Of a DNA stretch of 27,765 bases, positions 7,618 through 24,953 are shown piece by piece (the first letter of the stretch is position 1; each line of letters opens with the position of its first letter). Under the pieces are notes generated by a model. That model had not been told where the DNA came from. It saw nothing but the letters and a program-made list of their open reading frames with translations, and did not search any database. Position numbers and translations under genes: made by a program. Location: positions 1-27,765 of IMG/VR virus record IMGVR_UViG_3300035701_000223; one strand, given 5' to 3'. Origin of the DNA: a virus.

Positions 7618-8319
7618 CTATTGAGGCTTGCTTTGCTTTTTTAGCGCGTTCATCCTTTTGTGGATAAACGTATGATAAGGACGATCTTGGCAAATTACAA
7701 GATTCCTGTTTCTATTATCGTTCCTTATTTCATTGGCATGATGGACCGGTTCGGACGATTTCAAATATCTCCCGATGGCTTTTTCGGCAATAAATCGGTG
7801 TTCCAAAACATATCCGTTTTTATCGGCCAAGGGATGATCTTTTTTCAAAATGCGAACATAACCTTTTCCGTCAATGGTCCGGCCTCCTTTCCAATCTGGA
7901 TTATTTTCCCCCATGCGATTAATGGATAATTTAATTCGCCTTGATAGCGAAAGGGGAACCCCGCATTGTGCCGCATGGAGACTAATCAAGTGCTGTTGCA
8001 TTTTTTCGCTAGCCTTATTTGATGCCGATATTTTCCTTTTGACTTCTTCGGGCATAATCCGACCTTTTTGAACCATCGACATTTTAGCCCGCTCTTCCTT
8101 AGAAAATTTACGATGATAATTATAATTCGCCTTTCCGACGCCCTTCCCTTTTCTATTCAATGATATCTTTATTTTTGATTCTTCGGAATGATGTCGTCCT
8201 TTGAATGGAGAGGATTGGCCCATGAAGGCGCTTGATAATTTTGCCCTTGTTTCCCTAGAAACCGCGTGCCCCATTTTCGACTGAGATATTTTTTGCTTTG
8301 ATTCTTCGGTATGTAGCAT
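7618..8319 (-). CDS. HNH homing endonuclease with NUMOD3 repeats
   Basis: 233 aa on the minus strand. I place the start at the ATG whose complement is 8317-8319, because AAGGAG lies six bases upstream of it; the frame stays open to 8481 but those upstream residues look non-protein-like. The N-terminal part carries three NUMOD3-type DNA-binding motifs (HTEESKQKISQSKMG, HSEESKIKISLNRKGKG, FSKEERAKMSMVQKGR). The C-terminal ~75 residues form an HNH nuclease (VLEHRFIAEKAIGR, EPVHHANEIRNDNRNRNLV). Such enzymes nick or cut a target allele and spread by repair. Its antisense orientation between two rightward operons, and its own RBS, mark it as a free-standing mobile gene. I found no group I intron core around it. 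Confidence 0.9.
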   Translation of the reverse strand: MLHTEESKQKISQSKMGHAVSRETRAKLSSAFMGQSSPFKGRHHSEESKIKISLNRKGKGVGKANYNYHRKFSKEERAKMSMVQKGRIMPEEVKRKISASNKASEKMQQHLISLHAAQCGVPLSLSRRIKLSINRMGENNPDWKGGRTIDGKGYVRILKKDHPLADKNGYVLEHRFIAEKAIGRYLKSSEPVHHANEIRNDNRNRNLVICQDRPYHTFIHKRMNALKKQSKPQ

Positions 8320-8474
8320 CGGTTTGCTCCTTGCTTCCATTAGATACGACATTAGGATACAAGTCAAGGGAAATCTACAATAATGCTGGCTAGCGTTTCC
8401 GACTCGATAGCATAATTCGTGCCAAATTCCAATTTTAGAATGAAATTTATTTTGATATTTCTTTGCCCGGACTA

Positions 8475-8503
8475 TTGACAAAGGTCTTGACTTGATATAT
8501 TTT
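8475..8503 (+). promoter_or_regulatory. Sigma-70-type promoter for the replication/early operon
   Basis: A perfect -35 box TTGACA (8475-8480) is followed after 15-17 bp by TATATT/TATTTT (8496-8503). Transcription would begin near 8510, just before the ATG at 8520, and drive the long rightward run of early genes. It lies in the spacer between the divergent HNH and HTH genes. Confidence 0.7.
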
Positions 8504-14280: not shown

Positions 14281-14516
14281 GTGAGAAGAGCCTGATGAAA
14301 CTAGCATCGGACCTAGGGGTATCATTTAGCGCGGCCAAGATTATCAGCGACCACGTAAGGGCAGAATACAACGGTCGGCTTCAAGGGGCAGATGCGTTGT
14401 GCGAAGCGGCAAAGGATGTAATGGTGATAATCGATGAAGATGAGGCAATAACCACGGATGAAGCAAAGCCACTCCGCAAGGCCATCGCCGACTATGAGGG
14501 GAAGGAGGAAGCATGA
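14277..14516 (+). CDS. Hypothetical 79-aa helical protein, paralogue of upstream gene
   Basis: ATGA overlap with the preceding gene. Residues ~5-28 (SLMKLASDLGVSFSAAKIISDHV) could be a helix-turn-helix, which I state with low confidence. The second half shares LCEAAK and the C-terminal AIADYEGKEEA with neighbours. From 14478 on, its 3' end is part of the 29-bp segment that borders the tandem duplication. Confidence 0.6.
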   Translation: MSEKSLMKLASDLGVSFSAAKIISDHVRAEYNGRLQGADALCEAAKDVMVIIDEDEAITTDEAKPLRKAIADYEGKEEA

Positions 14517-15103
14517 AAACAACAAAAGCCATCCTGACTGAGTTAGATGCGTGCTCGGAGGCCGTGAAGTGGGCCGGTCGAAAGACGCATAAGCAAGCGT
14601 GGGAGACGTGCAAGCGCGGAGACTGGCTATTATGGATTGCGGACAGGTTCGACGTTGACAGGAAACTACTTGTCTTGGCCGCGTGCGGTTGTGCGAGAAC
14701 GGTCCTCAAGTATGTTCCAGTAGGCGAAGATCGACCGAGGATTGCCATTGAAACGGCTGAGGCGTGGACAAGAGGTGAGGCGATGATTGACCAGGTGCGA
14801 TCCGCCGCCTATGCCGCCGCCTATGCCGCCTATGCCGCCGCCGATGCCGCCTCTGCCGCCCATGCCCTCTATGCCGCCGAGGCCGCCGCCTATGCCGCCG
14901 ATGCCGTCTATGCCGCCTATGCCGTCGATGCCGTCTATACTGCCGCCCATGCCGCCGTCTATGCCGCCCATGCCGCCGATGACGTCTATACTGCCGCCCA
15001 TGCCGCCGCCCATAAGAACATGGCTGGTGTCGTGCGGAAGATCATCCCGTTCAGCGTTATCAAAAAGGCCATCGCCGACTATGAGGGGAAGGAGGAAGCA
15101 TGA
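14513..15103 (+). CDS. Imm5-like Ala/Tyr-rich repeat protein, tandem copy 1 (196 aa)
   Basis: ATG with a perfect SD (AAGGAGGAAGC) and ATGA coupling. Residues 1-95 (AWETCKRGDWLLWIADRFD, LLVLAACGCARTVLKYVP, DRPRIAIETAEAWTRGEA) resemble the Imm5-type putative immunity domain, whose members also carry Ala-rich helices. Residues ~97-163 are almost entirely Ala with Tyr, Asp, His and Val (AAYAAAYAAYAAADAA...), predicted as long amphipathic helix or solenoid. The end (GVVRKIIPFSVIKKAIADYE then GKEEA) carries the shared cassette tail. 'Immunity' is only the family label; partner and role in this phage are unknown. The next gene is a duplicate with one residue changed. Confidence 0.7.
   Translation: MKTTKAILTELDACSEAVKWAGRKTHKQAWETCKRGDWLLWIADRFDVDRKLLVLAACGCARTVLKYVPVGEDRPRIAIETAEAWTRGEAMIDQVRSAAYAAAYAAYAAADAASAAHALYAAEAAAYAADAVYAAYAVDAVYTAAHAAVYAAHAADDVYTAAHAAAHKNMAGVVRKIIPFSVIKKAIADYEGKEEA
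14801..15010 (+). repeat. GCC-rich low-complexity tract, copy 1
   Basis: 210 bp built almost entirely from GCC, TAT, GAT, CAT and GTC codons, coding the Ala/Tyr helix. GCC is used for nearly every alanine, so the DNA itself is a triplet-phased repeat. It leaves long open frames on both strands, which are shadows. Confidence 0.85.
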
Positions 15104-15684
15104 AAACAACAAAAGCCATCCTGACTGAGTTAGGTGCGTGCTCGGAGGCCGTGAAGTGGGCCGGTCGAAAGACGCATAAGCAAGCGTGGGAGACGTGCAA
15201 GCGCGGAGACTGGCTATTATGGATTGCGGACAGGTTCGACGTTGACAGGAAACTACTTGTCTTGGCCGCGTGCGGTTGTGCGAGAACGGTCCTCAAGTAT
15301 GTTCCAGTAGGCGAAGATCGACCGAGGATTGCCATTGAAACGGCTGAGGCGTGGACAAGAGGTGAGGCGATGATTGACCAGGTGCGATCCGCCGCCTATG
15401 CCGCCGCCTATGCCGCCTATGCCGCCGCCGATGCCGCCTCTGCCGCCCATGCCCTCTATGCCGCCGAGGCCGCCGCCTATGCCGCCGATGCCGTCTATGC
15501 CGCCTATGCCGTCGATGCCGTCTATACTGCCGCCCATGCCGCCGTCTATGCCGCCCATGCCGCCGATGACGTCTATACTGCCGCCCATGCCGCCGCCCAT
15601 AAGAACATGGCTGGTGTCGTGCGGAAGATCATCCCGTTCAGCGTTATCAAAAAGGCCATCGCCGACTATGAGGGGAAGGAATGA
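15100..15684 (+). CDS. Imm5-like Ala/Tyr-rich repeat protein, tandem copy 2 (194 aa)
   Basis: Differs from copy 1 by Asp12 to Gly and by loss of the last two residues: the shared tail is cut after GKE, where the DNA runs directly into the RusA-like gene (GGAATGATTG). Otherwise identical, including every synonymous position I compared. Near-perfect identity means either a very recent duplication, active conversion, or an assembly error. It overlaps the resolvase gene start by ATGA. Function as for copy 1. Confidence 0.7.
   Translation: MKTTKAILTELGACSEAVKWAGRKTHKQAWETCKRGDWLLWIADRFDVDRKLLVLAACGCARTVLKYVPVGEDRPRIAIETAEAWTRGEAMIDQVRSAAYAAAYAAYAAADAASAAHALYAAEAAAYAADAVYAAYAVDAVYTAAHAAVYAAHAADDVYTAAHAAAHKNMAGVVRKIIPFSVIKKAIADYEGKE
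15388..15597 (+). repeat. GCC-rich low-complexity tract, copy 2
   Basis: Copy of 14801-15010 within the second unit of the tandem duplication. The same triplet-phased GCC-rich composition codes the Ala/Tyr helix. Confidence 0.85.
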
Positions 15685-16486: not shown

Positions 16487-17284
16487 ATGAATAAAAAAAG
16501 AATGGTAGTTGTCTCAGACTTTCATAGCGGCCATGAATACGGATTGACGCCGCCGGATTGGTGGTTCAGGGAAGATGCTGAGGCAGAGCGAATCTCTAAG
16601 CCTGCCAAGTTTCAGAGGAGACTATGGGAGTTCTATACGAAGACTATAGACTCGCTGAAGCCCATCGATATTCTGGTTGTCAACGGGGATGCAATCGAGG
16701 GTAAGGGTGAACGATCCGGAGGTGTCGAATTGATAACGCCGGACAGACATGAACAGGTAAGGATGGCCAGAGAGATCATTGACTATACTCATGCTCCCCT
16801 TGTCCGGATCCTCTATGGAACGAGATATCATGTCGGCAAGGAAGAGGACTTTGAATCCACCCTGAAGGATTCGCTACATTGTGAAGACGTGCAGATTCAA
16901 GGACACGCGTTTCTTGAGATCAACGGGAACGGCGTGGATATAAAGCATAAGGTTTCCAGCAGTACGGTCCCTCATGGCCGGATGACGGCAATTGCTAGGG
17001 CGCATCTCTGGAATGTTGTTTGGAACGCCGAGCATGAACGGCAACCGAAAGCCGATATCATCATTCGGAGTCACGTGCATTATCACCAATATTGCGGCGG
17101 ATCATCATGGTTGGCGATGACCACTCCGGCTCTTTGTTATAACTCATCCTATGGGATTCGGGAATGCGAAGGTCTGGTGGATATTGGGATGATATGCTTC
17201 GATTTCGATGACGAAGGAGGATATATATGGCATCCAGAGATTGCAAATTTCGCGGATTTAAAAGTGCTGTCCGAAGAGATATAG
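16487..17284 (+). CDS. Calcineurin-like metallophosphoesterase
   Basis: 265 aa, SD AAGGAGGAAC. Motifs of the two-metal phosphoesterase fold occur in order: Asp11-x-His13 (SDFHSGH), Asn66-Gly-Asp68 (VVNGDAIEG), GTRYH (111-115, in place of the usual GNH), His173 (ARAHLW), and His196-x-His198 (RSHVHYH). Phage members of this family are usually predicted DNA or nucleotide phosphoesterases; the substrate here cannot be told. The GN-to-GT change at the third motif is notable but His115 is kept. It sits between small accessory genes and the conserved unknown at 17351. Confidence 0.82.
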   Translation: MNKKRMVVVSDFHSGHEYGLTPPDWWFREDAEAERISKPAKFQRRLWEFYTKTIDSLKPIDILVVNGDAIEGKGERSGGVELITPDRHEQVRMAREIIDYTHAPLVRILYGTRYHVGKEEDFESTLKDSLHCEDVQIQGHAFLEINGNGVDIKHKVSSSTVPHGRMTAIARAHLWNVVWNAEHERQPKADIIIRSHVHYHQYCGGSSWLAMTTPALCYNSSYGIRECEGLVDIGMICFDFDDEGGYIWHPEIANFADLKVLSEEI

Positions 17285-17568
17285 GGGTTTCATGGAGAGA
17301 GATCGAGGAGGCGAGAGCCAAAACGGGAAATCTGAACGAGGAGGAAGAGAATGAAGAATTCGAAGGAATTGAATCGGAAGGTTATTCTGAGTGGCATTTC
17401 CGACATCATGTTCGACCGGTATCCGGGGGACAACAATACGACCTTGACGCCGGAGAAGAAGATGTATTTTGCGATGGACGAGAAGACATTGATTCTACCG
17501 GCGGCGAATTTAATGTCTTTTCTGAGCGCACAAAATACAGACTCTGCACCCAAAAGGTTTCTCGCTAA
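17227..17568 (+). CDS. Overlapping ORF with strong SD (113 aa), uncertain
   Basis: The ATG at 17227, inside the end of the phosphoesterase gene, follows GAAGGAGGATATAT, a strong ribosome site. The first 40 residues (MASRDCKFRGFKSAVRRDIG VSWREIEEAR) look protein-like and fill the 66-bp gap to the next gene, but the frame then runs 218 bases through the 185-aa gene, where it reads like a shadow. A short real gene that lost its stop codon by a frameshift is plausible. Confidence 0.4.
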   Translation: MASRDCKFRGFKSAVRRDIGVSWREIEEARAKTGNLNEEEENEEFEGIESEGYSEWHFRHHVRPVSGGQQYDLDAGEEDVFCDGREDIDSTGGEFNVFSERTKYRLCTQKVSR

Positions 17569-17908
17569 GCAATATAAGAAAATTGCTTCGGCCATGCTGA
17601 GTTATGTATCTATCACGCCATTTGAAATCCCATTTACGGCAGACGGGAAGCCGGTTGTTTTCGGGGGATTCGGGAAGCAATTTTACATTCATAATTCCGT
17701 GGCAAGATTGAATAAAGGCGTTCCGAATCCGAAGACTCGTCCGGCACTGAGGTTGCCGTGGGAACTGTCGTTCAATGTGTCGATCTATCCGAATAACGAA
17801 TTCAGTGAAGACATGTTGAATGATCTTTTCGTTCGGGGCGGCGTGGCAATCGGGCTGGGGACGTTTAGGGGGGTTTTCGGGAAGTTCCGTGTATCGACAT
17901 GGGAATAA
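17351..17908 (+). CDS. Conserved phage protein of unknown function (185 aa)
   Basis: ATG with GAGGAGGAAGAGA upstream. The sequence (VILSGISDIMFDRYPGDNNT, KKMYFAMDEKTLILPAANLM SFLSAQN, IPFTADGKPVVFGGFG, GGVAIGLGTFRGVFGKFRVSTWE) is well-formed and alternates beta strands and helices. The ending 'GLGTFRGVFGKF' recalls the glycine-rich loop of RAMP/Cas7-like folds, and I have a vague memory of similar phage proteins, but this is inference. It could bind single-stranded nucleic acid. Its stop codon lies two bases before the first NNGGC array. Confidence 0.7.
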   Translation: MKNSKELNRKVILSGISDIMFDRYPGDNNTTLTPEKKMYFAMDEKTLILPAANLMSFLSAQNTDSAPKRFLAKQYKKIASAMLSYVSITPFEIPFTADGKPVVFGGFGKQFYIHNSVARLNKGVPNPKTRPALRLPWELSFNVSIYPNNEFSEDMLNDLFVRGGVAIGLGTFRGVFGKFRVSTWE

Positions 17909-18001
17909 TCGCGGCGCGGCTGGGCTAGGCAGGGCAAGGCTTGGCTTGGCTGGGCAGGGCATGGCGCGGCAAGGCCGGGCAAGGCAAGGTGGATTATTAC
18001 C
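17901..18001. repeat. 10-bp inverted repeat enclosing the first NNGGC array
   Basis: GGGAATAATC (17901-17910) and GATTATTACC (17992-18001) are inverted complements at 9 of 10 positions, bracketing the first pentanucleotide array. A further GATTAT (18106-18111) ends the second array. They could be element ends or a stem that presents the array as a loop. Confidence 0.55.
17911..17990 (+). repeat. Phased pentanucleotide array 1 (NNGGC)15
   Basis: Fifteen consecutive 5-bp units with fixed GGC and varying first two bases (dinucleotides in order GC GC TG TA AG AA TT TT TG AG AT GC AA CG AA), then AAGGT. The array has no point interruptions. It starts two bases after a stop codon and ends in AGGTGGATTAT. 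Confidence 0.93.
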
Positions 18002-18010
18002 GCACATATC

Positions 18011-18105
18011 GTGGCAAGGCGTGGCGCGGCAAGGCGTGGCAAGGCTTGGCGCGGCAAGGCCGGGCAAGGCAAGGCAAGGCGTGGCAAGGCGAGGCAAGGC
18101 TAGGT
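18011..18105 (+). repeat. Phased pentanucleotide array 2 (NNGGC)18
   Basis: Eighteen consecutive NNGGC units (AA nine times, GT four, GC two, TT, CG and GA once), then TAGGT. It is separated from array 1 by 20 bp, exactly four units, so the 5-bp phase is unbroken across both. A 24-bp stretch (17966-17989 and 18051-18074) is shared by both arrays. The array end provides the GTG start of the next gene. Confidence 0.93.
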
Positions 18106-18463
18106 GATTATAAAAAATGCTCTCTCTAAAAACAAAATAGACAAAGATTGTCGAGGTTATGAAAAACTACTCGTCGCCATCGCGCTCCAAGCCGTTCAAG
18201 ATTATCTCAACGGCCCGTCCAAAGACAATAGGCGAAATTATACAAAAATCAAACAGTATCAACGTGATAAAATTAACAGTCAAAACAAAATCTACGCAAG
18301 CGCTAAACGCTATATTTTCGACGGAATATCGGATAACTCTATTTTCGGATTTAGTTCCATCATGAATTATTTCCAGATCGACATACCCCATGCCAGGAAA
18401 AAGATACGGTTATCTAATAGTAAACAAACGGCCTTACGTTCTTTGCCCCTTGACAGGAAGTAA
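18104..18463 (+). CDS. Conserved phage protein, possible DNA-binding (119 aa), GTG start formed by array end
   Basis: An in-frame TAG lies at 18101-18103, and no other Met, Val or Leu start suits, so the GTG at 18104 is the start; GAGG and AAGG of the last array units act as its ribosome site. The sequence (LLVAIALQAVQDYLNGPSKD, YASAKRYIFDGISDNSIFGF SSIMNYFQIDIPHARKKI) resembles a widespread small phage protein with an N-terminal helix, an 'A..wIF' segment and a C-terminal FSF..i...L.idp.y.R..i block. Function unknown. Confidence 0.65.
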   Translation: MIIKNALSKNKIDKDCRGYEKLLVAIALQAVQDYLNGPSKDNRRNYTKIKQYQRDKINSQNKIYASAKRYIFDGISDNSIFGFSSIMNYFQIDIPHARKKIRLSNSKQTALRSLPLDRK

Positions 18464-18484
18464 GTCAATGCACATAATCAATAT

Positions 18485-18691
18485 ATGCAGGGAAAAGATC
18501 AAAATCCGGAATCCATCAAAACCTGCGTGCATTGTGGGGGGGAATTCCAACTTAAAAATGGCATCAAGATGAGACGTTCCTATTATTGCGGATATTGCCA
18601 AACCATTATGTTCGGCAATCCCGATCTTGCCTGGATACCGAAACTTCGGAGAGCCGAAACAATCCCCCCTGGATTTCACAAGATAGAATGA
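18485..18691 (+). CDS. Zinc-ribbon protein (68 aa)
   Basis: Two Cys pairs, CVHC (~14-17) and CGYC (~35-38), define a zinc ribbon (TCVHCGGEFQLKNG, RSYYCGYCQTIMFG). The ATG at 18485 lacks a clear SD; an out-of-frame ATG at 18468 has a better one (AGGAAG) but opens only a 34-codon frame. Seven G at 18535-18541 fall within the first knuckle. It is coupled to the endolysin by ATGA. Confidence 0.55.
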   Translation: MQGKDQNPESIKTCVHCGGEFQLKNGIKMRRSYYCGYCQTIMFGNPDLAWIPKLRRAETIPPGFHKIE

Positions 18692-19035
18692 CTAACACAC
18701 TCCTCCGCGCAGAATTCAATCGCCTATTCGGGCTTCTTTCCGTTTACGCCGACATCAATGATATTAAATTCATTCATGGAAACGAGGGATATTACCGAAC
18801 TGCCGAACAGCAAAAGGCGTTATTCGATGCCGGTAAATCTAAGTGTGATGGCGTGAAGATTATCAGTCGCCATCAATCCCACCTTGCCCGAGATCTCTAT
18901 GTCATTAACGGCAAGGCTCAGATTGTTTGGGACGATTCGCCTTATATAATTCTCGGGGCATATTGGAAAAAGCTGGGCGGAACGTGGGGGGGTTATTTCG
19001 AGGGATTTAGGGACATTTTTCACTTCGAAATCTAG
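18688..19035 (+). CDS. Endolysin-type M15 peptidase (D-Ala-D-Ala carboxypeptidase / L-Ala-D-Glu peptidase-like)
   Basis: 115 aa from the ATG at 18688. Zinc-binding motifs of the VanY/M15 family are visible: Ser60-x-His62...Ala67-x-Asp69 (SRHQSHLARD; the usual Gly is His65) and Asp109-x-x-His112 in the terminal DIFHFE. YRTAEQQKALFDAGKSK is the typical upstream segment. His62, Asp69 and His112 should hold the zinc. It cleaves peptide stems of peptidoglycan for host lysis. There is no signal peptide, so a holin should release it; the small membrane proteins nearby are candidates. Confidence 0.85.
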   Translation: MTNTLLRAEFNRLFGLLSVYADINDIKFIHGNEGYYRTAEQQKALFDAGKSKCDGVKIISRHQSHLARDLYVINGKAQIVWDDSPYIILGAYWKKLGGTWGGYFEGFRDIFHFEI

Positions 19036-19041
19036 CAAGAC

Positions 19042-19128
19042 ATGGATAAAATCCATATATACGGGTGGGAAACGGCTCTCAAGAACAGGCGATGGGTGGG
19101 CCGCCGAGAGCACGGGGGAAGTGCATAA
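19042..19128 (+). CDS. Possible 28-aa peptide
   Basis: ATG at 19042, product MDKIHIYGWETALKNRRWVG RREHGGSA, ending in TAATG shared with the next gene. No clear SD. Its codons include the next gene's ribosome site (GGGGGAAG). Weak support beyond coupling. Confidence 0.35.
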   Translation: MDKIHIYGWETALKNRRWVGRREHGGSA

Positions 19129-22942: not shown

Positions 22943-23206
22943 ATGAGCCGCCACTTGAAACGACGGTTAAGAAGCCTTGGCGGTTTCTTCGCGCTAGGCA
23001 TGGGTACGGATGTACTCGTCGTCCTCTGGTATCGCTCGGTCTCAAGCGGCATAGTATTTATGGCGATGTGTGTATCGTTCTTGGTTACACTTGTACCATT
23101 TCTGGTAACAGAACGTGGCATCACGGCGGGCAGGCGTGAACTTTTCGTGGCGTATGCGTTCGGGGCATCGGCGGGCACGCTTGTGGGGATGATGGTACGC
23201 ATTTGA
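22943..23206 (+). CDS. Membrane protein with two or three TM helices (87 aa)
   Basis: ATG at 22943, AGGA seven bases upstream. Segments GGFFALGMGTDVLVVLWY, GIVFMAMCVSFLVTLVPFL and FVAYAFGASAGTLVGMMV are membrane-spanning. The start MSRHL and its leader resemble the gene at 22434, a sign of shared ancestry by cassette copying. It overlaps the methyltransferase start by TTGA. Confidence 0.6.
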   Translation: MSRHLKRRLRSLGGFFALGMGTDVLVVLWYRSVSSGIVFMAMCVSFLVTLVPFLVTERGITAGRRELFVAYAFGASAGTLVGMMVRI

Positions 23207-23976
23207 TCTATCATGGCGACTGCCTTGACGTGATGCGCGGCATGGAACCGGATAGCGTGGATGCTATCGTTACCGACCCGCCATATGGCCTTGAATTCAT
23301 GGGGAAGGAATTTGATACGTTCCATGACTTCGATATTCCAGCCGATTTTGGGATGTGGCTTGCCGGGTTCATAGACGGAGAGGGTAATTTTGACATTCAT
23401 CGCCAGCATAGGCCGAGCGGGGACTATTACTACTGCCGATTTGAGATTAGTCTTCGCGCCGACGACGGCGGTATATTATCCATGCTCAAAGAGCGACTTG
23501 GGGGGAAGGTTTATTCTGGAAGTTCAATCCTAAACGGGAAGACGCACCAGAAGCAACGATGGGAGCTTGTCGCCCGCGCTGAATGTGCTCGGTTAGTAGG
23601 AGTATTGGACCGTTATCCACTACAAAGCAAAAAGAAAAGGGACTTCATTATTTGGCGCGAGGCATTGGCGGAGTCAATGAAAAACCCTGGGGTCAATCGC
23701 CCAGAATTGATGGCTGGGTTTTGGGAGAGATTAAGGGGTCTCCGGGAATATTGCGGGCCAATTACCGAATCGTCGGTTTTCATAAACGCGGCAAACCCAC
23801 GCGGGTTCGACCACTTCTTTTATCAATGGGCCGTTGAAGCCCTGCGTGTCGCCAAGCCCGGATGCCACCTACTCGCGTTTGGAGGAACGCGGACGAGCCA
23901 TAGACTCACGTGTGCAATTGAAGATGCGGGTTGGGAAATCCGCGATTGCCTCATGTGGGTTTACGGCTCGGGCTAA
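23203..23976 (+). CDS. Beta-class DNA methyltransferase, N-terminal part, with in-frame LAGLIDADG domain; ends at UAA
   Basis: TTG start (MIYHGDCLDVMRGMEPDSVD, typical of these enzymes). DPPY (residues 25-28) is catalytic motif IV. At about residues 50-190 an unrelated domain begins WLAGFIDGEGNF, an exact LAGLIDADG motif, and continues as a single-motif homing endonuclease (RFEISLRADDGGILSMLKER LGGKVYSG...). The methyltransferase resumes at NPRGFDHFFYQWAVEALRVA KPGCHLLAFGG...MWVYGSG, where the frame stops at UAA (23974-23976). The rest of the enzyme continues in another frame from 23982. Intein splice blocks are not visible. Either an 8-nt insertion broke the gene or the ribosome skips it. 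Confidence 0.85.
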   Translation: MIYHGDCLDVMRGMEPDSVDAIVTDPPYGLEFMGKEFDTFHDFDIPADFGMWLAGFIDGEGNFDIHRQHRPSGDYYYCRFEISLRADDGGILSMLKERLGGKVYSGSSILNGKTHQKQRWELVARAECARLVGVLDRYPLQSKKKRDFIIWREALAESMKNPGVNRPELMAGFWERLRGLREYCGPITESSVFINAANPRGFDHFFYQWAVEALRVAKPGCHLLAFGGTRTSHRLTCAIEDAGWEIRDCLMWVYGSG

Positions 23977-23981
23977 CTGGC

Positions 23982-24953
23982 TTCCCTAAAAGTTTAGATG
24001 TGAGCAAGGCGATAGACAAGGCGGCGGGGGCGAAACGGGAAGTTGTAGGGACTTATAGGATTACTGGATTGACGCCAAATCGTAAAAACTTTGGAGCGGA
24101 TAATAGAAGTGGTGGTCAAGGTATGGGATTTCGACCGGGAGATATCCCCATTGTCGCCCCTGCAACCGACGCCGCCCGCAAATGGGCGGGATTTGGGACT
24201 TCTCTCAAGCCCGCCTATGAACCCATCATCATGGCCCGCAAGCCGCTGGATGGCACGGTAGCCGCGAACGTCCAGAAGTGGGGGTGCGGAGCTATCAATA
24301 TCGACGGGTGCAGGGTTCCAGCTAATGGGGATATGGTCAATGCCCGGAAAGACAAGGGCAACATTCAAGATAAAGGGCGAACTTCCCAAGTATTATCCAC
24401 TCCGCAAGGGACACCTTGGGATGGGACGCAGGGTCGCTGGCCCGCGAACCTGATCCACGACGGGAGCGACGAGGTGCTGGAACTGTTCCCGAGTCCACAT
24501 GGGGCAGGTTCAAAATATGATGGTGGAAAATGGGGGAACAAAAGCAATGCTATGTTCCCGCTTCAAAGTGGGGCTAGGTTTGGCGACTCCGGTTCCGCCG
24601 CCCGCTTCTTCTACTGCGCTAAGGCAAGCCGGGCCGAGCGCGAGATCGGGTGCGAGGGGATGGAGGAAACTCTTAGGAAAACGATGAGCGGCGGGGATTG
24701 CCGGAGTGAAGGGAGAACGGCAAAGCACGGCCATTCGACAATGAGCAACGTCCATCCTTGTGTCAAGCCCCTCGCCCTCATGCGCTACCTCTGCCGACTC
24801 GTCACCCCGCCCAACGGCATCATCCTAGACCCGTTCATGGGAAGCGGCACGACCGGCATGGCGGCCAAGATTGAGGGATTCCGATTCATCGGGATTGAGA
24901 AAGAGCAAGAATACGTCGATATAGCAGAACGGAGAATCGAGGCGACGGCATGA
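23982..24953 (+). CDS. Beta-class DNA methyltransferase, C-terminal part (other frame)
   Basis: 323 aa continuing exactly where the upstream part stops: FPKSLDVSKAIDKAAGAKRE follows GSG in relatives. A target-recognition region lies in ~60-220. DPFMGSGTTG (~283-292) is the AdoMet-binding motif I, after HPCVKPLALMRYLCRLV. With motif IV first and motif I last, the enzyme is beta class, N4-cytosine or N6-adenine. There is no good start codon or SD at its beginning; a TTG at 23931 is out of place. On its own it would lack the catalytic motif, so it needs the upstream part. Confidence 0.85.
   Translation, partial: FPKSLDVSKAIDKAAGAKREVVGTYRITGLTPNRKNFGADNRSGGQGMGFRPGDIPIVAPATDAARKWAGFGTSLKPAYEPIIMARKPLDGTVAANVQKWGCGAINIDGCRVPANGDMVNARKDKGNIQDKGRTSQVLSTPQGTPWDGTQGRWPANLIHDGSDEVLELFPSPHGAGSKYDGGKWGNKSNAMFPLQSGARFGDSGSAARFFYCAKASRAEREIGCEGMEETLRKTMSGGDCRSEGRTAKHGHSTMSNVHPCVKPLALMRYLCRLVTPPNGIILDPFMGSGTTGMAAKIEGFRFIGIEKEQEYVDIAERRIEATA

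What the first reader, a model, noticed from the sequence alone, without database searches (positions are those of the whole stretch)
17901..18111. Two phase-locked arrays of a degenerate 5-bp repeat (NNGGC) with shared borders
Seen directly: 33 units of NNGGC in two arrays (15 and 18), each unit keeping GGC while the two other bases vary widely, with no single-base slip. The 20-bp spacer equals four units, so the phase carries through. Array 1 is enclosed by a 9/10-matching inverted repeat (GGGAATAATC and GATTATTACC), and both arrays end in (A)AGGTG(G)ATTAT-like sequence. Both share a 24-bp stretch. Simple slippage should give near-identical units, not constant GGC with free dinucleotides. 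Ideas (inference): a binding platform with GGC facing the same side every two units (10 bp, one helical turn), a two-tier G-quadruplex former in RNA, an iteron-like element, or a mobile repeat with ATAATC/GATTAT ends. I recall translated versions of similar repeats (ARQGK-like) in phage databases but no known function.
Basis: partly seen in the sequence, partly recalled or inferred. Interest (0 to 1): 0.88.

Follow-up and report, generated by a model that had tools for sequence, protein, structure and literature searches.

The report
Two phage guide-RNA repeat arrays (VIPR)
The odd five-letter repeats are most likely two guide RNAs, sitting next to the gene for a small CRISPR-like protein, in a recently reported phage system (VIPR) that is used to silence rival viruses; this is a new environmental example of it, not a new kind of thing.

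Summary
The arrays are real: 16 and 19 NNGG(C/T) units at 17911-17990 and 18011-18105, GG constant in 35 of 35, identical in another contig about 99.6% identical to the window. They start 2 nt after the stop of an unnoticed 185-aa gene (17351-17908). A profile grown from the protein hits one ORF in each of 85 of the 120, all 85 within 1.5 kb of an array and on its strand. It also hits phage SUSP1 Vipr (E 1.8e-30); the family alignment hits PDB 36pp, 'SUSP1 Vipr protein' (E 6.8e-25); the model (pLDDT 96) matches type III CRISPR RAMP chains (Z 13.1). So this is a VIPR system (preprint PMC13142463): GGY binds Vipr, the variable NNs read DNA with a 1-nt skip. Two related phages carry different NNs and arrays 40 and 20 nt different in length, arguing against coding. 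No target was found. The window lies in a distinct, well-supported clade; a metallophosphoesterase gene adjoins vipr in three of its phages and is a candidate accessory.

The parts
17351..17908 (+). vipr gene: 185-aa RAMP (Cas7/Csm3-like) protein; Gly-rich loop GLGTFRGVFGKF near the C-terminus
   Evidence: Profile grown from it hits SUSP1 Vipr E 1.8e-30; 48-sequence family alignment hits PDB 36pp_D 'SUSP1 Vipr protein' E 6.8e-25; AF2 pLDDT 96; best PDB folds are type III CRISPR chains; phrog_4652 matched by 46 of 48 family members at E 0.001, by the window protein itself at E 0.0012
17338..17347 (+). ribosome-binding site GAGGAGGAAG of vipr
   Evidence: read from the sequence
17911..17990 (+). 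array 1, vrRNA-like: 16 NNGG(C/T) units; NN = GC GC TG TA AG AA TT TT TG AG AT GC AA CG AA AA
17991..18003 (+). short 3' tail candidate of array 1 (GGATTATTACCGC)
   Evidence: resembles the sequence after array 2; sequences after arrays tend to be alike within a phage and unlike between phages (read by eye)
18011..18105 (+). array 2, vrRNA-like: 19 NNGG(C/T) units; NN = GT AA GT GC AA GT AA TT GC AA CG AA AA AA GT AA GA AA TA
18106..18118 (+). short 3' tail candidate of array 2 (GATTATAAAAAAT)
16487..17284 (+). metallophosphoesterase-like gene, candidate accessory (vap) gene
   Evidence: Adjacent to vipr in window, L057 and L095; with the 34-kb record of L095 the window shares only it, vipr, an array-overlapping frame and one other ORF; the L095 homologue hits PF00149 E 1.1e-5, the window and L057 proteins do not
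18104..18463 (+). 119-aa ORF with a GTG start overlapping the last unit of array 2; function unknown, weak phrog_7024 match (E 0.00034)
   Evidence: only the near-identical L072 and two weak matches (L057, 3.7 kb away, E 0.004; L095, E 0.006)

Best explanation
The locus is a VIPR system. Shown: a gene for a Vipr-family RAMP protein lies directly upstream of two GGY/NN arrays on the same strand, and this association recurs widely. Inferred from the VIPR preprint: the arrays are transcribed (probably with vipr, as no + strand promoter-like site was listed between 16300 and the arrays) and give two guide RNAs. Vipr subunits coat the RNA, holding each GGY, and the exposed NN pairs jointly recognise double-stranded DNA in which the NNs are separated by one unread base. 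The predicted target of array 1 is GCxGCxTGxTAxAGxAAxTTxTTxTGxAGxATxGCxAAxCGxAAxAA and of array 2 GTxAAxGTxGCxAAxGTxAAxTTxGCxAAxCGxAAxAAxAAxGTxAAxGAxAAxTA, on either strand. Binding would repress transcription of a competing phage, satellite or prophage. The last one or two units, often AA in relatives, may be a fixed handle rather than guide.
For: Repeat-only scan, then protein profile: 85 of 120 loci, one ORF each among 6275 ORFs examined, 85 of 85 within 1.5 kb and on the same strand (the 85 include L072, the window's near-copy, and near-duplicates such as L035 and L044). Family includes SUSP1 Vipr by HMM and by PDB sequence match to 36pp_D, profile positions 7-183. Model pLDDT 96. Of the 50 Foldseek PDB rows shown, 48 are type III (Csm/Cmr) chains and 2 type IV. 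VIA: Z 13.1, 161 residues, 3.5 A to chain 9g9b_D of a Csm complex; Z 12.6 to 6nbt_B, named Csm3. Arrays adjoin vipr in the 13 close relatives, after it, before it or both. L080 and L110 (Vipr 89% identical): flanks of the upstream array 89% and 93% identical over 120 nt, 19 versus 11 units, NNs differ apart from the border units; the array after vipr differs by 20 nt. In 301 arrays TA is rarer within units (o/e 0.74) than across unit joints (1.00), and re-pairing bases within guides never reaches the observed codon-doublet score in 200 trials. Mechanism from PMC13142463, whole main text read in four parts.
Against: No target was found for either array: exact 8-9-unit scans of viral contigs and of genome contigs for array 1 gave only matches that I judge to be chance (best array 1 25 of 32 bases, array 2 28 of 38). 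A test of 310 arrays against 2.15 Mb of fetched DNA showed no clear excess for the 1-nt skip (mean matched fraction 0.757 against 0.751, 0.752 and 0.753 for skips 0, 2, 3). Array 2 has 19 units, above the 9-16 of the preprint. The window protein alone does not hit 36pp by phmmer; the family profile is needed. 34 of 120 repeat loci had no Vipr hit, 18 of them with neither a simple repeat nor a nearby end of the held DNA. The codon-doublet score is negative overall, and GC is enriched both within (1.24) and across units (1.31), so it shows non-random pairing, not codon phase. Transcription is untested.
Confidence: 0.93

Rival explanations
1. The repeat codes for a low-complexity protein (ARQGK-like), and the pattern is a by-product of codon use.
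For: The array is open in several frames and ORFs of 62-195 aa cross it.
Against: In L080 and L110 the stretches between matching flanks differ by 40 nt at the upstream array and 20 nt at the one after vipr, neither a multiple of three; arrays in relatives are broken by odd units; a separate conserved gene, vipr, lies beside the array.
Confidence: 0.02
2. The array works as DNA or RNA structure: a DNA protein-binding platform with a 10-bp repeat, an iteron, or a two-tier G-quadruplex.
For: GG every 5 nt could in principle form two-tier quadruplexes (not tested); the region folds somewhat better than shuffles (z -2.57, 2 of 200 shuffles as low).
Against: None of these needs two free bases and a pyrimidine after GG, variable NNs between near relatives, a fixed strand relative to vipr (85 of 85), or linkage to a RAMP.
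Confidence: 0.03
3. It is a decayed or inactive VIPR locus: the parts are present but no longer used.
For: No target found; array 2 is longer than the reported 9-16 units and rich in AA units (9 of 19).
Against: vipr is intact with a ribosome-binding site, the Gly-rich loop and family-invariant residues are kept, and no unit within the two arrays has lost its GG.
Confidence: 0.07

Closest known systems
VIPR of Escherichia phage SUSP1 (type II in PMC13142463)
   Same: Vipr-family RAMP gene flanked by GGY/NN arrays on the same strand; window-rooted profiles match its protein over nearly full length
   Different: Window protein is 19% identical to it and lies in another part of the tree; window units are GGC in 33 of 35, SUSP1 units GGT in 15 of the 17 found; no structured tail was established here; neighbour is a metallophosphoesterase
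Class 1 CRISPR-Cas RAMP subunits (such as Csm3)
   Same: Same fold, Z up to 13.1; Gly-rich loop (the motif as a RAMP hallmark is recalled and from the preprint)
   Different: No CRISPR repeat-spacer array in the window; guide made of pentanucleotide units
Vipr-like gene of Phage DSL-LC04 (annotated as helix-turn-helix regulator)
   Same: Family member, E 1.4e-38, near GGY/NN arrays
   Different: Different clade; tblastn from the window protein covers only 30% of it

Membership tests
VIPR | Vipr, a minimal RAMP homologue of about 20 kD | tested here: met
   185 aa; profiles hit SUSP1 Vipr and PDB 36pp_D; type III CRISPR RAMP fold
VIPR | Gly-rich (G) loop | tested here: met
   GLGTFRGVFGKF; W137, G168 and R173 invariant in 48 of 48 and G164, G170, G177 in at least 90%; that this is the G-loop is my reading of the sequence
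VIPR | Thumb domain that interrupts pairing | not tested
   not examined in the model
VIPR | Arrays of alternating GGY/NN with hypervariable NN, near vipr | tested here: met
   35 of 35 units GGY; NN differ between relatives L080 and L110; array 1 starts 2 nt after the vipr stop (same in L072)
VIPR | 9-16 units per vrRNA | tested here: inconclusive
   16 in array 1, 19 in array 2; processed ends unknown
VIPR | Invariable, structured 3' tail | tested here: inconclusive
   Both arrays end GGT(G)GATTAT, but no structure was established; no Rfam match in the window or 13 clade loci
VIPR | vap accessory gene | tested here: inconclusive
   Metallophosphoesterase adjacent in 3 phages (window, L057, L095); the preprint's vap list (supplement) could not be read
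VIPR | Target sites under the 1-nt skip rule | tested here: inconclusive
   No target found; no clear skip-1 excess locally
VIPR | vrRNA transcribed and bound by Vipr | not testable with these tools
   needs RNA sequencing and pull-down
VIPR | Carried by phage or provirus | tested here: met
   window is a virus record with terminase and endolysin matches
Class 1 CRISPR-Cas | CRISPR array of identical repeats with unique spacers | tested here: not met
   direct repeats of 20 nt or more within 150 bp form only two families in the window, the Ala-rich gene pair and these arrays
tandem-repeat protein gene | reading frame kept between relatives | tested here: not met
   array lengths differ by 40 and 20 nt between L080 and L110; one pair examined

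The most novel reading that the evidence does not exclude
The window's clade (14 Viprs on a long, fully supported stem) is a VIPR type or subtype not characterised in the preprint, with mostly GGC units, short tails, arrays that often abut the vipr stop codon, and in part of the clade a metallophosphoesterase accessory that could degrade or nick the bound target.
Probability: 0.3. Interest if true: 0.66.

Novelty: new member of a known kind. Interest (0 to 1): 0.55.

Why it matters
It turns an unexplained repeat into a readable guide: each array spells out a predicted gapped DNA target. It also shows that a search for the repeat alone recovers Vipr genes, and gives an environmental phage clade, distant from the laboratory example, in which to test how far the 1-nt skip code, array length and accessory genes vary. 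The pair L080 and L110 makes the open question of how NNs are rewritten directly approachable.

Tried and rejected
Targets of array 1: viral contigs units 3-10 (stopped at 120 rows), 5-13 (5 stretches), 9-16; genome contigs units 5-13. Extending the fetched loci gave at best 25 of 32 and 28 of 38 bases, which I take as chance because 16-18 bases were fixed by each search; no formal test was made. Patterns of 11 and 12 units with up to 3 mismatches in 23 virus records behind my loci: 0 of 23 for each array. Arrays against 2.15 Mb of fetched DNA (arrays masked), skips 0-3: no clear excess for skip 1. One guide each from two bacterial Vipr loci against their genera, up to 2 mismatches: 0 of 11 and 0 of 7 genomes.

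A first family profile included translated array sequence and gave 87 of 120 loci; I rebuilt it on the 185 window columns only (85 of 120). With ORFs down to 50 aa the same profile gives 86 (L047 added), leaving the 34: 12 with the array within 800 bp of an end of the held DNA, 4 simple repeats, 18 others. L039 and L082, hits, are among the 34.

Dropped before counting: loci L141, L072, L035 and L114 as (near-)copies, arrays under 8 units, the first and last two units of each array, and cores under 6 units for the codon score. Only 48 sequences (the window and 47 of the 72 family rows with over 75% coverage) went into the alignment used for folding.

The metallophosphoesterase model was poor (pLDDT 49), so it was not searched. 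Its homologue in methanogen virus vir555 has no array or Vipr in the 10.8 kb read, so the gene is not exclusive to VIPR. BLAST of 17200-19100 against phages: no match. Vipr against plasmids: no match. Vipr in 5 genomes and in 7 genomes of another phylum: none. PADLOC: none for five proteins. Pfam: none for 48 family members.

Full report
What is there. The window holds two head-to-tail arrays of NNGG(C/T): 16 units at 17911-17990 and 19 at 18011-18105. GG is constant in 35 of 35 units, position 5 is C in 33 and T in 2, and positions 1 and 2 vary. The longest run in 200 first-order Markov simulations of the window was 4 units. L141, part of IMG/VR contig L072, which aligns to the window at about 99.6% with scattered differences, carries the same two arrays, so an assembly artefact is unlikely.

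The gene beside it. ORF 17351-17908 (185 aa) has a clear ribosome-binding site and ends 2 nt before array 1. No Pfam, NCBIfam or PADLOC family matches it. PHROGs gives a weak match to phrog_4652 (E 0.0012), a family of unknown function that 46 of 48 members of the protein family match at E 0.001 or better.

Blind association. Iterating a profile from the window protein, restricted to its 185 columns, against 6275 ORFs (those of the loci and of L141 and L142) gave a hit in 85 of 120 loci, one each, all within 1.5 kb of an array and all on its strand. The 85 are not all independent: L072 is the window's near-copy, and L035 and L044 have identical Viprs. Of the 34 loci without a hit, 4 are simple repeats, 12 have the array near an end of the held DNA and 18 are unexplained.

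Identity. A literature search brought up PMC13142463, a 2026 preprint on VIPR systems (whole main text read in four parts; the supplement was not available). Three further searches with VIPR- or RAMP-related terms listed no other paper on the system, and a fourth, on gapped RNA guidance, listed by title and abstract nothing that I recognised as such. The preprint describes a small ancestral RAMP, Vipr, with guide RNAs of 9-16 YNNGG repeats that read DNA with a one-base skip and act on competing phages. The window-derived profile hits the Vipr gene of phage SUSP1 (E 1.8e-30), and a 48-sequence family alignment led by the window protein, without SUSP1, hits PDB chain 36pp_D, 'SUSP1 Vipr protein', over profile positions 7-183 (E 6.8e-25). 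The window sequence alone does not reach it. The AlphaFold model has pLDDT 96. Of the 50 PDB rows shown by Foldseek, 48 are type III (Csm or Cmr) chains and 2 are type IV; VIA gives Z 13.1 to chain 9g9b_D of a Csm complex (161 residues, 3.5 A) and Z 12.6 to 6nbt_B, named Csm3. The Gly-rich stretch is kept across the family, with G168 and R173 invariant in 48 of 48.

Hypervariability, and why it is probably not coding. In L080 and L110 (Vipr 89% identical) the 120 nt on either side of the upstream array are 89% and 93% identical, yet the array has 19 units in one and 11 in the other, and the NNs differ apart from the border units. For the array after vipr an ungapped flank comparison failed (23% and 57%) because L080 has two more units before a GGA break; measured between matching flank words it is 20 nt longer. 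Differences of 40 and 20 nt would break a reading frame. Sequences after arrays tend to be alike within a phage and unlike between phages (by eye), as expected of a tail; in the window both arrays end GGT(G)GATTAT.

A hint about the code. In 301 unique arrays from Vipr loci and the window, TA is depleted within units (o/e 0.74) but not across unit joints (1.00), and AA and TT are enriched within (1.23, 1.25) but hardly across (1.03, 1.09); GC, however, is enriched in both (1.24, 1.31). Re-pairing bases within guides never reached the observed codon-doublet score in 200 trials (-71.9 against mean -147.7, sd 13.3). This fits NNs that match adjacent bases elsewhere with a gap between units, but the score is negative overall and biased mutation in the array itself could contribute, so it is only suggestive.

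Targets. None was found. A local test of 310 arrays against 2.15 Mb showed no clear excess for the 1-nt skip. The targets may simply be unsampled, but the function in this phage remains inferred.

Clade and accessory. A maximum-likelihood tree of 74 Viprs puts the window with 13 others on a long stem with support 100/100, apart from SUSP1. Whether this is one of the preprint's seven types could not be tested. A metallophosphoesterase-like gene (16487-17284) lies next to vipr in the window, L057 and L095, before vipr in two and after it in the third. With the 34-kb record of L095 the window shares at E 1e-5 only this gene (57%), vipr (41%), an array-overlapping frame and one other ORF, so the pair seems to travel together. 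With the record of L057 it shares more, terminase among them. A homologue in a methanogen virus stands without Vipr or array in the 10.8 kb read.

Distribution. Among 299 Pseudomonadota genomes 13 have a match to the family's C-terminal part (the phylum is that of the named beta-proteobacterial record whose handle was the centre); of ten such loci read, seven hold a run of at least 7 units, one of them nearly a simple repeat (L364).

Verdict. A sound observation with a now known explanation: two VIPR guide arrays beside their Vipr gene. Novelty lies in the clade and the possible accessory.

Noticed in passing
window 14513-15684: Tandem near-duplicate genes (196 and 194 aa) with Ala/Tyr/Asp-rich internal repeats; the near-identical contig L072 ends inside this stretch, so copy number there is unclear.
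   Followed up: no
window 23203-24953: N6/N4 DNA methylase with a LAGLIDADG endonuclease domain inserted (E 2.4e-13), the methylase match continuing in another, overlapping frame.
   Followed up: partly
window 7621-8481 (-): ORF with NUMOD3 (E 7.7e-18) and a weak HNH_3 match, a likely homing endonuclease, on the minus strand.
   Followed up: no
Vipr loci: Consecutive arrays start 4 mod 5 apart in 109 of 218 cases, which may be the 'staggered arrays' mentioned in the preprint.
   Followed up: partly
L268 2569-3186 (Phage DSL-LC04 OR003939): Gene annotated as helix-turn-helix regulator is a Vipr-family member near GGY/NN arrays.
   Followed up: yes
L043, L069, L108, L024: Close Viprs (82-96% identical) with very long array fields, up to 42 continuous units; the NN strings look different between phages by eye, not tested.
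   Followed up: no
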